Shown here: in pieces, positions 15,177-24,637 of the stretch
Layout of the letters: every line of letters starts with the position of its first letter
Numbering within the stretch: position 1 is the first letter of the stretch
DNA from: Owenia fusiformis
Taxonomy: Eukaryota > Annelida > Polychaeta > Sabellida > Oweniidae
Assembly: GCA_903813345.2 (NCBI GenBank)
Contig: CAIIXF020000007.1
Location: 28,383,564-28,447,563 of the forward strand
Direction: 5' to 3'
Length of the DNA: 64,000 nucleotides
Made by a program: the position numbers and the translations under genes
Notes under the pieces: model-generated
Databases searched by the model: none
Seen by the model: only the letters and a program-made list of their open reading frames with translations
What the model was told of the DNA's origin: nothing

Positions 15177-18100
15177 TTTTTTTTATTTTATTTATATATT
15201 TCTACAAAGAATACATTAAACAAGTGCACATGTGCTTGTGGCTGGGCATCAGCATTATCAGCCACGTTATGTGATGAGAGTCAATTAACAGTATTCAATC
15301 AGACATTAAAAAAGGGTTGTATTTGTGGAGGGTTACAGTGGTGGGGGTGACCTAGACATTTTTACATCGTTCAAAAAAGATGGCACTACAAAATAAGTTT
15401 ACAGCGTTAGGTAGTCTTTTATCACCATTGAGGATAAGGGAGAGTTTGTCTCGTTGTGATCTATATTTAGTAGAATATTCTATGTTCATATTTTTTAATT
15501 CATTTTCAAATTCTGTTCAAAATGTTGATCTTAGATTACAGTGAAAAATTACGTGATTAGTTGTTTCACCATCCATTCCACACTGGCAGATGGGGCAGTT
15601 TACATTAGTGAAATTATGAGCGTAGAGGTGAGCCTTAAAAATGAGATCACATCGCACTCTATTGAAAATTGTTTCTTCTTTTCTTGAAACGGGGAGTTCT
15701 GATGAATTTGTAACATCGTCATTGAATAAATCTATTTTAAGCCTGGATTTGAATATACTAAGGGTAGGTGAATTTCTTATTTCAGGTGAAAGCTTGTTCC
15801 ATTCAGTAAGTGTTTGTGATATGCAAGATCTATTAGAAAATGAGGATTTATTTGGAATTGTGTAGCTCAGTTGATTTCTTAGACCATAAACATGATTTCT
15901 TTTGAGAGGCTCAAACATGTTAACAGACTTGCCAACCTCCCGTTTTCTACGGGAATCTCCCGTAAATTTTTTGTTTTTCCGTAAAAAATACCGAACTCCC
16001 GTACCGTTTTCTCCCGTAAAAACTCCCGTAAACTCCCGTACCGCATTTCTACTAAAATCTCCCGTAATTTTTTTTAAAAATATGGCCGTAAAATCTCCCG
16101 TATTTTTGTTCTTGTGCCATGCTCACCTACACGGGAATTTTAAAAATGCAAATACAAGTGTATCATTCGTATCACCCACACGGGAAATTTGAAATGTAAT
16201 TTACGAGTGCATTATCCGTATCACCCACATGCCATTCTCACAAACAGTGATATTTAAATGTAAGGTCTTGATGAATTATCACGTGTGAAAATTCTGATCT
16301 TACTCCATTTTAATGCTATGCACAGATGAAGATGCATCCATATAACATGAGCACAGGTTGTCATTTCATCAAAATACATGTAGTACATGAAGGTAACAGT
16401 GTGTATGTATGCTGAAATCTCCCGAACATCTCCCGTATTCTGGTATAACTCCCGTAAAATCTCCCGTATTCTTGGTATAACTCCCGTAAAATCTCCCGTT
16501 TTCTGGTATAACTCCCGTAAAATCTCCGTTTTTTGCTATCGAAATCTACCGTATTTAAAAGGAATTTGACAAATTTGTGACCTTGATTATTGCAGGCACG
16601 CTTCTTTCTTTTACTCCAAGAAGGATTGGCTCCCATGGTTCACTATCGATACTTTCATAAATAACTTAAAAGTACTTCATTCCCATGATTCAAATTGCTT
16701 TTCTGCGATCAGTTCGGTATAAGTTTGCACACCAAATGTCCACAAACGGGGGCCAGTTCATATTCTGCCATACTTCTGTCGGGAGAATACATTTTGTTTT
16801 TATATGGCGCTATACAAAATATTCCCGCAATATAAGGCGCATTATGGGTAGGGACTGCTGTGAAATAATGAACGTAAGTGAAATCTATCTTAGATTATAA
16901 GTTCTATCAATTTATTAACTGCGCATGCGTCATCGATTTCAACCAATTAAATCGCTGGATTTAATGCTCATGCGCGAAAACCCGAACCTAAAAATGGAAC
17001 CTCACGCAGATTGCCCTTAGCATATAGTGAACGCCACATATACATTTAACTTAGCTTTGATCAATTCGTTTCCAAAGTAATAACATTTTCCCGTTTTTTC
17101 AGAAATCTACCGTAAAAACTCACGTTTTTTTTCAAAATGTACCGTAAAACACCCGTTTTTTCAGAAACCTACCGTAAGAACTCCCGTTTTTTTCGAAATC
17201 TACCGTAAAAACTCCCGTTCTTTCAAAATCTACCGTAGAAACTCCCGTTTTTTTCAAAATCTAAAGTAAAAACTCCAGTTTTTTCAGAAATCTAGCGTAA
17301 AGCTCCAGTTTTTTTTCAAAATCTACCGTAAAAACTCCCGTTTTACATAAATCTACCGTAAAAACTCCAGTTTTTTCCGAAATCTGCCGTAAAAACTCCC
17401 GTTTTTTCAGAAATCTACCGTAAAAACTCCCGTTTTTTCAGAAATCTACCGTAAAAATCCCGTTTTTTCAGAAATCTACCTTAAAAACACCCGTTTTTCG
17501 GATATCTACCATAAAAACTCCAGTTTTTTTAAAAAGCTACCGCAAAAACTCCCGTTTTTTCAGAACCTACCGCAAAAACTCCCGTTTTTTCTGAAATCTT
17601 CCGTAAAAAAGTCACGTTTTTTTAAATTTACCTCGAAAATACCTTTTTTAAAAAATCTCCCGTAAAAACTCCCGTTTTTTCAAAATCTCCCGTAGAAACT
17701 CCCGTTTTTTTCAAAATTTACCGCAAAAACTCCCGTTTTTTTTAAATCTCCCGTAAAAACTACCGTTTTTTTCAAAAATCTTCCGTAAAAACTCCCGCTT
17801 TTTTCAAAAAACTCCCGCAGAAACTACCGGATTTTGAAAAAAACTCCCGTAAAAGTACAGCAATTTTTTTTAAATCTCCCGAAAAATTTTCATTTTAGGT
17901 TGGCAAGTCTGTGTTAAGAACATAAGAGGGTAGCATATTATTATGTGCCCTATACATGAAAGTACTTCTGTGATATTGACGCCTCTTTGTTAATGTTGGC
18001 CAATTTAAATTATTCAACACTTCAATTGTCGAAGTCCCATGTAGAGTGCCTGAACAAATGCAAGCGACTTTATAGTAAAGTCGATCTAATAACTGTAATT

Positions 18101-19585: not shown

Positions 19586-21419
19586 TAGTTTGTGAGTTTT
19601 CAAAATATGATTACAACTAAGAAATTGATTATGTCATTGGTGGGATATTCACAAATCAATTCATTCCCTCGATTAGGAAATGAGGGAAATTTTTAAAATG
19701 AACTGTACTTTCCTGGTTTCTTTGAGAAACCGTCCTCCCCAGTGGTGTTTACGTTATTTAAAAGTTAAAGTTGCAGTAAAAGTTTAGCTTAAAACGTTTA
19801 TCGGAAGCTCTCTAATGTTCTCCTTGTTGAAACGTCGGTACATCAACACGCCAATGCTAAGAACGTAGCTCAACCGTTAATTTTTTTTGGTTTACAGAGT
19901 TTGGATTAGAATATATTAAGATACGGCCATTTACTCAGGGACCCAAGTTCTGAGAAACAGCTAGAAAGTGAAAATGGATATTGGAAAGTATTACGCGAGA
20001 TTTTTTCAGTTCTTGTTGGAAAATAAGTTACTTTTATGATGTGGGGTGATATCTAGAGTTTGAGACTTGCGAAAATAAGATATCTTCATCTTTATACCCC
20101 CCGCCCTATAATTTTAGGGGGGTCAGAAGAAAATAGACTTTAATTCATAACTTTGGAAGTATATGAGATACAAACTTAATTTTTTCACCAAAATTTATGA
20201 AATAACATCAGTAATGGAGAAAAAAATATTTTGAATGAAAAAAGCTAATTTGCATAATTTAACCCTTAAACTGCCATAAAAACTAGTAAATGACGAAATG
20301 ATGTTATATCACATTTACTGTTATTGCCTTCATATGAAGTTATAACTTATGAAATAATTCCTAAAAATGCATCTATATATGTATAATAAATGTGCAAAAT
20401 ATTAGAAGTGTATCTTAGATAAAGACTGTGAAAAAAATTCTCCCCCTACCCAGATTTTTGAGGGGAGGGGGTCAAATAAAAATGGACTTTAATTCATAAT
20501 TTTAAAAGTATATGAGGTACAAACTTAATTTTTTCACCAAAGTTTATGTAATAACATCAGTAATTCAGAAAAAATATTTTTGATACGCAAATGAGTTAAT
20601 TTGCATAATTTAACCCTTATACAGTCATAAAAACTGTTAAATGACGATGCGATAAAATACGACATTTACTCTAATTGACCTCTCATGAAGTTTTAACAAA
20701 TAAAATAATTCCTAAAAATGCATCTATATATGTATAACAGATATTTGAGGGGGGTCAAATGGAAATGGACTTTAATTCATAACTTTGGAAGTATATGAGG
20801 TACAAACTTAATTCTTTCACCAAAATTTATGTTATAACGTCAGTAATTCAGAAAAATATCTTGATATGAAAATAAGCTAATTTGCATAATTTAACCCTTA
20901 TACAGTCATAAAAAACGTTAAATGACAAAGTGATGAAATACGACTTCTATGAAGTTATAACTTGTGAAATAATTCCTAGAAATACATTTACAACAGGTAT
21001 GCACAATATAAAAAGGGTATTGTATATAATGAGTGTGAAAAAATCACGCACCCTACCCTAATATTTTAGGGTTGGGGGAAGAAAATAATAAACTTTGATT
21101 CATAACTTTGAAATCGTATAAGAAAGAGCTTATACATGTATTTCTTCGCCAGAATATTGAGAAATCGCATCAAGAATGAAACAAATATTACATGGAAACA
21201 ATATTATACTAGTAGTAGAAGTAAATTTATTAATTAAATTCTTACGCACTAAAGATGTTACATTAAGATACATACATGAATTAAAACAATTCCTGGTTGA
21301 TGCCGACCTATTAGAGACCATCGCATGTAACTATTTCACGACTTTTGACTAACATATTTATCATACATTTTCCAAGTGTCCTTTGAACAGTTTTTTTTCA
21401 TTCATTATTATACAATATT

Positions 21420-21610
21420 TTCCTAGACAATGTAAAAGTCACTATGGATATCAGTCATTTAGGCAAACAGACTTAATCGTTCATTTTCAAACATATGACA
21501 TTCTACTTTAAAGTGAGTTTCTGTCTCCATTGACTGTCCACATGGGCATATAACAAAAATCCCAAAGTCATTTTGCACATGCAAACGATACAAGGACAAA
21601 GCATTATGTT
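21420..21610 (-). pseudogene. LINE C-terminal zinc-motif fragment
   Basis: The minus strand reads SLYRLHVQNDF then ICPCGQSMETETHFKVEC, the typical end of a CR1/L2-like reverse transcriptase protein, followed by a stop. It lies inside the centre of the fold-back element. Confidence 0.65.
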
Positions 21611-21625
21611 AAACCACTTGCTCAT

Positions 21626-21916
21626 GTGCCACTGCAGGTACAGAATGTTTTGCTGCATGTTCATGCGGCTCAAAGGAAAGTGAGTGTGGACGGGAATAAG
21701 TGGATTAACCCAAATATATATGATGACATTTTCACTGCATCAGGTACCTACAACCTAGAATATGACACCAGTCCTCACAGTGACTCTGATTATGGTTCAA
21801 TAAACTTTAGAATTGTTATGGTTACCTTTTTAAGGGTTATTCTGAAACATTGCAAGTTCAATTCAACTCAATTTATTCATACATTTAATCATTATGTGTA
21901 CACATATTATTATTAA
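21626..21916 (+). CDS. Unrecognised 96-codon frame inside the fold-back
   Basis: The frame reads through AAQRKVSVDGNKWINPNIY and SPHSDSDYGSINFR and then becomes hydrophobic and low-information. Its composition before residue 62 looks like real protein, but I recognise no family. There is no supported promoter, and the ATG is not certain. It could be a captured exon or chance. Confidence 0.2.
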   Translation: MPLQVQNVLLHVHAAQRKVSVDGNKWINPNIYDDIFTASGTYNLEYDTSPHSDSDYGSINFRIVMVTFLRVILKHCKFNSTQFIHTFNHYVYTYYY

Positions 21917-22320
21917 TAGGTGGCACCACAGGTGATGCTTAAATACCCGTACATATAGTAGTTAAATCATGAAGTATCATTATGTTGTCAACGAATCAAA
22001 CCGGAATGTAATCACAAAAGTTAGATTATAATAAATAAAGGTATGGGGGATCCATGATGCTCGTTTCATTTGAAGCCAAGAAGGTGCCATATGCCATGGG
22101 GAAATTTTATGAATGTGTAGCTTCATTAATTATTATTTAAAGATGCAAGGCTACCGCATTGACGCAAATAATCTTTAAAAGTGTGATTCTTATAAGGTTG
22201 GTATGGTCAGAATTATTATTTTAGATCTTAAGTAGTTTGGAGCAGCCCCCAGGTTGGCCCATGTACCTCCCTTGAGAGCCTACCCTTCTTACTGAAGAAA
22301 CAAGAAATGATATAGTCAAC

Positions 22321-22570
22321 TAATGATTAATAAGCTAAGAGAATATGCTTCTCCAGTTTTGATTTAAGAAAAGAAATGGAATTTGACTTTTTTATTTCTT
22401 CTGGGAGATTGTTCCATATGGAGTAACCATTAAAGGCTATTGTTTTTTGCCATAATTTTCAGTTTTGCTTTAGGAAGGGTGAAGTTTGATTTGCCTCTAG
22501 TATTATATCTATGAAAATCTCCATGGGTATTGAAATAGTTGGGAAAAATAGCTTCATAATTCTTGATATC
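22321..22570 (-). pseudogene. LINE C-terminal fragment
   Basis: The minus strand reads YFNTHGDFHRYNTRGKSNF, then a frameshift, then the WNSLPEE-like region (EQSPRRNKKVKFHFF). This is the post-RT C-terminal region common to CR1/L2-type proteins. It is broken by stops. Confidence 0.6.
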
Positions 22571-24502
22571 ATTTTTTCCATTTAAATGCTAGTATTAAGA
22601 AAGGATATATTGTCAAAGTCCTTACTTCATGTGAAGTCAATTTCAGTATAGAACCACTTTGCCTTATAATGATTCTCATGACTGTTTGAAGCTAAAATTA
22701 TGCAAATTAGTTGAAATATAGTATTGTCCCCATGTAATATTCGTTTCATTATTGATGTGATTTCTCAATTTTCAGCGAAGAAATATAAGCTCTTTCTTAA
22801 ATTATTTCAAAGTTATGAGTTAAACTCTATTATTTTCTTTAACCCCCCCCCCCCCGAGCCCTCAAAATTATTAAGGTAGGGTGTAAGATTCTTTTCACAC
22901 TCATTATATAAAATAACCTCTTTATATTGTGCATATCTGTTGTACATTTTTTCTCGAAGTTATAACTTCATAAGAAGTCAATTATAAAGTAAATGCCATA
23001 TTTTATCACTTCGTCATTTAACGGTTTTTATTACTTTATAAGGGTTAAATTATGCAAATTAGCTTATTTGCATATCAAAAATTATTTTTTCTGAATTACT
23101 GATGTTATAACATAAATTTTGGTGAAAAATTAAGTTTGTACCTCATATACTTCCAAAGTTATGAATTAAAGTCCATTTTCATTTTGACCCCCCCCCCCTC
23201 AAATATCTGGGTAGAGGGAGAATTTTTTTCACAGTCGTTATGTAAGATACACTTTTAATATTTTGCACATCTGTTATACATATATAAATGCAACTATATG
23301 AATTATTTCATAAGTAATAACTTCATGAGAGGTCGATTAAAATAAATGTCGTATTTTATCGTTTTGTCATTTAACGGTTTTTATGACTGTATAAGGGTTA
23401 AATTATGCAAATTAGCTTATTTGCATATCAAAAATGTATTTTCTGAGTTACTGATGTTATTACATAAATTTTGGTGAACAAATAGGTTTATACCTCATAT
23501 ACTTCCAAAGTTATAAATTAAAGTCCCTTTTTAGTTGACCCCCCTGAAATATCTGGGTAGGGGGAGAAATTTTTTCACAATCTATATATAAGATGCACTT
23601 TTGATATTTTTCACATCTATTATACATATATAGATGCATTTTTAGGAATTATTTCATCAGTTATAACTTCATATGAAGGTAATTACAGTAAATGTCGTAT
23701 ATTATCATTTTGTCATTTAATAGTTTTTATGGCGGTTTAAGGGTTAAATTATGCAAATTAGCTTATTTTTGTTCAAAATATTTTTTTCTCCATTACTGAT
23801 ATTATTTTGTAAATTTTGGTGAAAAAATTAAGTTTGTATCTTATATACTTCCAAAGTTATGAATTAAAGTTTATTTTCTTTTGACCCCCTCCCTTCAATT
23901 TTAGGGTAAGGGGAGAAATATTTTTCACAGTCGTTATGTAAGATACACTTTTAATATTTTGCACATCTAATATACATATATAGTTGCATTTTTAGGAATT
24001 ATTTCATAAGTTATAACTTCATATGAAGGCAATTACAGTAAAAGTTGTTTATTATCATTCCGTTATTTAATAGTTTTTATGGCGGTTTAAGGGTTAAATT
24101 ATGCAAATTAGCTTATTTTCGTTTGAAATATTTTTTTCTGCATTACTGATGTCATTCTATAAATTATGGTAAAAAAATTAAGTTTGTATCTCATTTACTT
24201 CCAAAGTTATGAATTAAAGTTTATTTTCTTCTGACCCCCCTGAAATTATAGGGTGGGGGGTATAAAGATGAGGATATCTTATTTTCGCAAGCCTCAAACT
24301 CTAGATATCACCCCACATCATAAACTAAATATATTTTCCAACAAGAAAATGAAAAAATCTCGCGTAATACTCTCCAATATTCAAAAACAAAAATATTCAG
24401 GCTGGGTCCCTAAGTAATTGTATTATAAGTGCATAGCCTTATAAAAAGGATGATTTCGTGAGTCCATGGTATGTGGTCATAGTGGCACGTGTTGGTGAAA
24501 TA

Positions 24503-24637
24503 ATAGGGAGTTTAAGCTTGCAATGTTTTTCACAACCTAAACGACAACGCAAAATATGTAAGCGATGCATTTGTATAGGCGATTGGTCATGCATATAGGT
24601 TGGTGTTTCGATTTTATATACAAGCTTGAACTCCCTA
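24503..24637 (-). mobile_element. 135-bp MITE (copy 2)
   Basis: Inverted ends GGGAGTTTAAGCTTGCA and CAAGCTTGAACTCCC, with TA at both borders. It matches, in reverse orientation, the module at 1830-1966. The minus-strand frame is open here (TPTYMHDQSPIQMHRLHI). Confidence 0.75.

What the first reader, a model, noticed from the sequence alone, without database searches (positions are those of the whole stretch)
19931..24417. Fold-back element with multi-kilobase arms made of ~350-bp tandem units
Both arms are inverted copies of an outer segment plus three to four AT-rich tandem units with poly-C/G tracts. Such arms resemble FB-type elements, but the central part holds dead LINE pieces rather than a transposase. 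The arms may have expanded by unequal exchange, and the whole could extrude a large hairpin.
Basis: seen in the sequence. Interest (0 to 1): 0.75.

Follow-up and report, generated by a model that had tools for sequence, protein, structure and literature searches.

The report
Fold-back transposon with Academ-type partner
The window holds one copy of a jumping DNA element with long mirror-image arms, found at about forty places in this genome, and a longer relative with nearly the same ends still carries an uninterrupted gene for the protein that probably moves it.

Summary
Window 19932-24416 is a 4,485-bp element with tips TACTYAGGGACCC, inverted arms of ~350-bp tandem units and a 3-bp target duplication (ATT). 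Its tips occur as 41 facing pairs in the genome (my count); of 34 copies read with standard ends, 32 carry a 3-bp duplication of varied sequence, so it moves as a unit and is no assembly artefact. The FB label fails on duplication length (3 bp, not 8-10). The 'dead LINE' is half the story: the centre holds a LINE piece and a remnant of a transposase gene. With 3-bp duplications and no helicase found this fits AcademX of the Academ superfamily; the nuclease match is suggestive (E=0.12), and no named Academ protein was at hand. Most likely mechanism: cut-and-paste in trans by the Academ-type protein, the tandem units serving as repeated binding sites, as reported for Galileo. The hairpin idea is not excluded but weakly supported.

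The parts
19929..19931 (.). left copy of 3-bp target-site duplication (ATT)
   Evidence: the two flank hits of the joined-flank query overlap by exactly these 3 bases
19932..24416 (+). whole non-autonomous fold-back element (4,485 bp)
19932..20117 (+). left tip and outer segment (TACTCAGGGACCC...), no tandem unit core
   Evidence: 96% identical to the coding copy over 150 bp; 31-bp core not found with up to 13 substitutions
20118..21193 (-). left arm: three tandem units (20118-20465, 20467-20743, 20750-21071) and a partial fourth (21075-21193)
   Evidence: nhmmer with one unit; cores at 20243, 20594, 20875
21548..21858 (+). decayed remnant of the transposase gene 3' part, 83% identical in DNA to the coding copy
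   Evidence: two sister copies read as P0001 1180-1274 at 83% with two stops each
22367..22631 (-). dead piece of a LINE reverse-transcriptase gene (C-terminal part), broken by stops and a frame change; inner limit approximate, at the start of the right arm
22603..24239 (+). right arm: partial unit (22603-22847) and four tandem units (22869-23192, 23195-23543, 23541-23889, 23891-24239)
24240..24416 (-). right outer segment and tip (read inward from the right end: TACTTAGGGACCC...)
24417..24419 (.). right copy of 3-bp target-site duplication (ATT)

Best explanation
The window element is a non-autonomous member of an Academ-type (AcademX-like) DNA transposon family with fold-back arms. An ancestor resembling the 7.87-kb copies lost most of its transposase gene, took in a LINE fragment, and was then copied to about 40 places. 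It is moved in trans by the protein of a coding relative that recognises the shared tips and, by inference, the conserved core repeated in each ~350-bp unit. Insertion duplicates 3 bp. Shown: the family, its tips, the 3-bp duplications, the long relative with open frames, the gene remnant and the LINE piece. Inferred: that the long relative's protein (or a close relative of it) moves these copies, that the units are binding sites, and the superfamily name.
For: 41 facing tip pairs in the genome (my count of the list). 3-bp TSD in 32 of 34 copies with standard ends, chance 0.024 per copy, 4 bp in 0 of 34. Two 7.87-kb copies with these tips, 99.7% identical, with an open 1,274-codon frame and an open 327-codon frame upstream. 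Left 150 bp 96% and right 150 bp 90% identical between window copy and coding copy, against 84.5% over the left 777 bp and 79% over the right ~1,060 bp. Remnant of the same gene inside short copies, 83% at protein level in two. C-terminal domain of P0001 aligned with 18 of 20 fetched homologues: invariant D19, D62, K73, R80, A168, D169, D194, D196, G254, D256, K266 among others, in the order of Rad2/FEN/XPG motifs (recalled); a profile search of the PDB lists exonuclease 1, aligned in order at two of these motifs, E=0.12. AcademX makes 3 or 4-bp TSDs, AcademH 9 or 10 (PMC10045372, discussion passage). No helicase among the Pfam hits of P0001/P0002.
Against: The short family and the two coding copies differ by about 15-21% over the arms in register, so the coding copies are a sister subfamily, not the direct parent. 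The exonuclease match is not significant and a third aligned piece is out of order; no Pfam family passed its cut-off, the only P-loop hint being AAA_23 at E=0.085 in P0002, and no XPG family appeared for 19 members. One of the two coding copies (L032) and one short copy (L028) show no TSD. No named Academ protein was at hand. The N-terminal half keeps acids that could form another catalytic site. Activity and binding are untested.
Confidence: 0.8

Rival explanations
1. An Academ-type family, but mobilised by a different, unseen autonomous element; L032/L033 merely share the tips.
For: About 15-21% divergence over the arms between the two kinds; 31 other loci with distant relatives of P0001 among the 36 of 553 candidates scored; of the tips, 7 of 41 pairs and 8 of 9 singles were not read.
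Against: The first 50 bases of the left end are identical between the two kinds. In the protein search only C5 and C483 hold a near-identical frame, the next best being 47% (capped list).
Confidence: 0.15
2. It is a member of the FB/MULE-type foldback elements proper (Drosophila FB, Tetris), moved by a Mutator-like transposase.
For: Same architecture: outer tip, tandem units in inverted arms, variable middle (PMC4079207 passages).
Against: TSDs are 3 bp in 32 of 34 and 4 bp in none, against 8-10 bp for Tetris; no MULE family among the Pfam hits of the coding relative.
Confidence: 0.03
3. Inverted duplication or long-read assembly artefact around a satellite, not a mobile element.
For: Long inverted arms are a known assembly hazard (general knowledge).
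Against: Copies of the same structure on contigs C1-C12, C336 and C483 with different flanks (one pair of copies, L027/L029, shares flanks) and 3-bp duplications.
Confidence: 0.01

Closest known systems
Academ superfamily, AcademX branch (PMC10045372, discussion passage; the AcademH paper PMC7165386 is not held)
   Same: 3-bp TSD, terminal inverted repeats, protein with XPG/FEN-like residue pattern, no helicase found
   Different: Inverted arms of ~0.7 kb (coding copies) to over 1.2 kb (short family) built of ~350-bp tandem units; I could not check whether named Academ families have such arms
Galileo (P superfamily, Drosophila; PMC3688188, abstract)
   Same: Long foldback-like inverted repeats with internal tandem repeats; there reported to carry multiple transposase-domain binding sites
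   Different: Other superfamily; THAP domain there, none among the Pfam hits here
Tetris and FB foldbacks (PMC4079207, passages)
   Same: Outer tip, tandem units, variable non-coding middle, non-autonomous
   Different: 8-10-bp TSD and proposed Mutator origin there; 3-bp TSD and a coding relative found here

Membership tests
Academ (AcademX) | 3 or 4-bp target-site duplication | tested here: met
   3 bp in 32 of 34, 4 bp in 0 of 34; definition from PMC10045372
Academ (AcademX) | terminal inverted repeats | tested here: met
   13-bp tips with one variable base, and inverted arms
Academ (AcademX) | XPG-like nuclease domain in the protein (definition recalled; the passage speaks of a nuclease) | tested here: inconclusive
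   invariant acids and K/R in 19 aligned sequences; exonuclease 1 at E=0.12; no XPG family for any of 19 members
Academ (AcademX) | no helicase domain (AcademH has one) | tested here: met
   no helicase among Pfam hits of P0001 and P0002 up to E=1; AAA_23 at E=0.085 in P0002 is below its cut-off
Academ (AcademX) | groups with named Academ proteins in a tree | not testable with these tools
   no Repbase or named Academ protein at hand
FB/MULE foldback elements | long inverted arms with tandem units | tested here: met
FB/MULE foldback elements | 8-10-bp target-site duplication | tested here: not met
   3 bp; 8-10 bp for Tetris
FB/MULE foldback elements | Mutator-like transposase in the partner | tested here: inconclusive
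   no MULE family among Pfam hits of P0001/P0002, but no transposase family of any kind was hit either

The most novel reading that the evidence does not exclude
The fold-back arms are not only binding arrays but the substrate: the inverted arms extrude or anneal as single strands, and the Rad2/FEN-like domain of the Academ-type protein, an enzyme class that cuts at flaps and junctions, releases or joins the element there. That would make Academ a transposon class that uses a structure-specific nuclease on its own hairpin.
Probability: 0.06. Interest if true: 0.85.

Novelty: new variant of a known kind. Interest (0 to 1): 0.42.

Why it matters
Foldback elements can lack a known partner; the Tetris authors report finding no autonomous copy. 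Here the short fold-back family and an uninterrupted coding relative sit in one genome, so the role of long tandem-unit arms can be tested. It also offers a system for asking what the XPG/FEN-like domain of Academ-type proteins does.

Tried and rejected
Pfam on four small ORFs of the window's central part: nothing. Pfam on P0001/P0002: three weak hits, none above cut-off; on 19 C-terminal members: five families, one member each, best E 0.011, none XPG. PDB search with P0001 alone: one chance match, E=0.95. Empty-site search for the window copy: of 40 scored matches (1,298 candidates) only the window's own two flanks reach the junction, so no paralogous empty site was seen; the two flank hits overlap by exactly the 3-bp duplication. 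Lower diversity at the ends among 22 copies (left 120 bp 0.005, interior bins 0.009-0.047) was not used as proof of constraint, because copies were picked by their ends; the comparison with the coding copies, picked by 14 bases, is cleaner. Arm homogenisation: in 66 pairs of 12 short copies 19 sites group arms within a copy and 5,619 group the same arm across copies, so hardly any conversion since the spread; between the two subfamilies 11-15 of 32-37 informative sites (six short copies tried) group arms within an element, against 16-20 for the same arm, and in the outer 100 bp 0 against 11 for the two copies shown by bin. The unit conservation was discarded because units were chosen by the core; one search repeats it with units chosen over their whole length (10 of 14 hits, those over 250 positions). 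N-terminal half of P0001: D196 in 10 of 11 (the eleventh is a partial that does not cover it), D369, D613 and E617 in 11 of 11, compatible with a second, DDE-like site, not pursued. TRF finds no array in the coding copy L033, its units being only about 69-76% alike. The first TSD script was off by one base and printed no duplications; anchors exactly and replaces it. Paper search used 'academ' as a word start, which also matches 'academic', so it says nothing about Academ.

Full report
What is there. The window lies at C7:28383564-28447563 of a 498-Mb genome in 525 contigs. At 19932-24416 there is a 4,485-bp element starting TACTCAGGGACCC and ending GGGTCCCTAAGTA, flanked by ATT on both sides. 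Its arms are inverted copies (346 nt at 86%, 241 nt at 90% and more) made of an outer ~186-bp segment and ~350-bp tandem units: three and a partial one on the left, four and a partial one on the right. A 23-bp core of the unit occurs 7 times in the window with at most one mismatch, mean 0 in shuffles.

It is a mobile family. The 14-base tip pattern occurs 91 times in the genome (control 3); by my count of the list these are 41 facing pairs and 9 singles, and 34 of the 41 pairs span 4.1-5.7 kb. I read 35 copies: 34 of the 41 pairs and one single whose right tip is changed (the window copy and loci). Of these, 34 have the standard left and right end types; 32 of the 34 are flanked by a 3-bp direct repeat of varied sequence (chance 0.024 each), none by 4 bp. 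L028 and L032 lack it; L001 has two left-type ends and was not counted. L027 and L029 share flanks and are probably one site on two haplotypes, which leaves 31 of 33. Among 22 copies of 4.3-5.3 kb the median pairwise difference is 1.9%, range 0.35-3.6%, so the spread is fairly recent; these copies were chosen by well-matching ends. Longer copies hold insertions (7.7, 9.6, 11 and 16 kb); a 1.6-kb copy (L034) is an internal deletion.

The centre. In 21 short copies the longest frame from stop to stop is 141 codons. Window 21548-21858 aligns at 83% with the 3' part of the coding relative, and two sister copies read as residues 1180-1274 of its protein at 83%, each with two stops. Window 22367 to about 22631 is a LINE piece: relatives outside the family lie in open frames of up to 1,203 codons, one of which, L067, carries reverse transcriptase and endonuclease domains (E 4.4e-33 and 3.7e-9). 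The first 22 residues of the query used lie in arm sequence, so the inner limit is approximate.

The partner. Copies at C5:13570232-13578110 (L032) and C483:202724-210594 (L033) are 7,879 and 7,871 bp, 99.7% identical, with open frames of 327 and 1,274 codons on one strand, 318 bp apart, perhaps two exons. L033 has a 3-bp duplication, L032 has none. They too have inverted arms (85% over ~700 bp) and tandem units, two cores on the left and three on the right. Against the window copy the left 50 bases are identical, the left 150 bp 96% and the right 150 bp 90% identical, while longer stretches of the arms stand at 79-85%: the ends are better kept than the rest, as expected if one protein reads both. 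In ten whole units from both kinds (of 14 hits) the best-kept stretch is TAAGGGTTAAATTATGCAAATTAGCT.

The protein. The C-terminal 443 residues of P0001 were aligned with 18 of 20 fetched homologues from the same genome, 20-45% identical. The best-kept positions follow the order xDG, FDRY, SxKxxERxRR, HEEAD, SxDTDV, GCDxTSxFxGxGK, which is the order of active-site motifs in Rad2/FEN/XPG nucleases as I recall them. A profile search of the PDB with E up to 10 listed seven sequences: a CXC protein (lin-54, E=0.012, on the Cys-rich tail), four exonuclease 1 sequences (best E=0.12, aligned at FD...SxKxxERxRR and GCDxxSxxxGxG, with a third piece out of order) and two YacP sequences (E=0.2). These are suggestive, not significant for the nuclease. 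With 3-bp TSDs and no helicase found they fit AcademX as described in PMC10045372 (one discussion passage and its reference seen). The N-terminal half keeps four near-invariant acids, so a DDE-like site is possible as well; which one cuts is open.

Mechanism. I take the short family to be moved in trans by an Academ-type protein. In Galileo, another transposon with foldback-like arms, DNA-binding sites of the transposase domain were found in the tandem repeats of the arms, and the authors propose that they provide binding specificity (PMC3688188, abstract). The same reading suits the repeated core here; it is an inference. The hairpin reading is weaker: the bases between the 13-bp tips and about position 45 do not match between the arms yet are kept between subfamilies on the left, and the arms of short copies have hardly been homogenised since they spread (19 against 5,619 sites). 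It is not excluded.

Novelty. Foldback structure has been suggested to arise independently in different lineages (PMC4079207, passages). A whole-word search for Academ together with foldback or 'long terminal inverted repeats' found three papers, none holding Academ; a search for Academ with four other terms found one paper holding it, where it stands in a list of superfamilies. The spelling 'fold-back' was not searched, and the AcademH paper and Repbase were not available, so a published Academ family with such arms cannot be ruled out.

Noticed in passing
L001 2905-7985 (C3:21265454-21275313): A copy of the family carries a nested 5.1-kb near-perfect palindrome (98% self-complementary) with a 6-base overlap at the junction, perhaps a second, younger fold-back element; the outer right segment of the host copy is of left type.
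   Followed up: partly
L022/L023 (C4:14457371-14474112): The 16.4-kb copy holds an ~11.8-kb insert with 475-bp tandem units and arrays of a 12-bp unit.
   Followed up: partly
window 20243, 20594, 20875, 23042, 23395, 23741, 24091: Each of these unit cores contains ATGCAAAT, which I recall as the octamer site of POU proteins; may be chance or a host factor site.
   Followed up: no
genome-wide: 31 further loci in the capped list encode distant relatives of P0001 (25-47% identical), 15 of them in open frames over 1,400 codons: this genome is rich in Academ-like genes.
   Followed up: partly
C8:31030562-31031978: A diverged relative of the central part (80% over 500 bp) that has no exact tip: an older copy or sister family.
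   Followed up: no
window 24490-24586: The right flank from about 75 bp beyond the element matches a repeat at 38 other places at 89-94% identity in a capped list.
   Followed up: no
window 16419-17886: Arrays of 31-bp units (CTCCCGTA...) upstream of the element.
   Followed up: no
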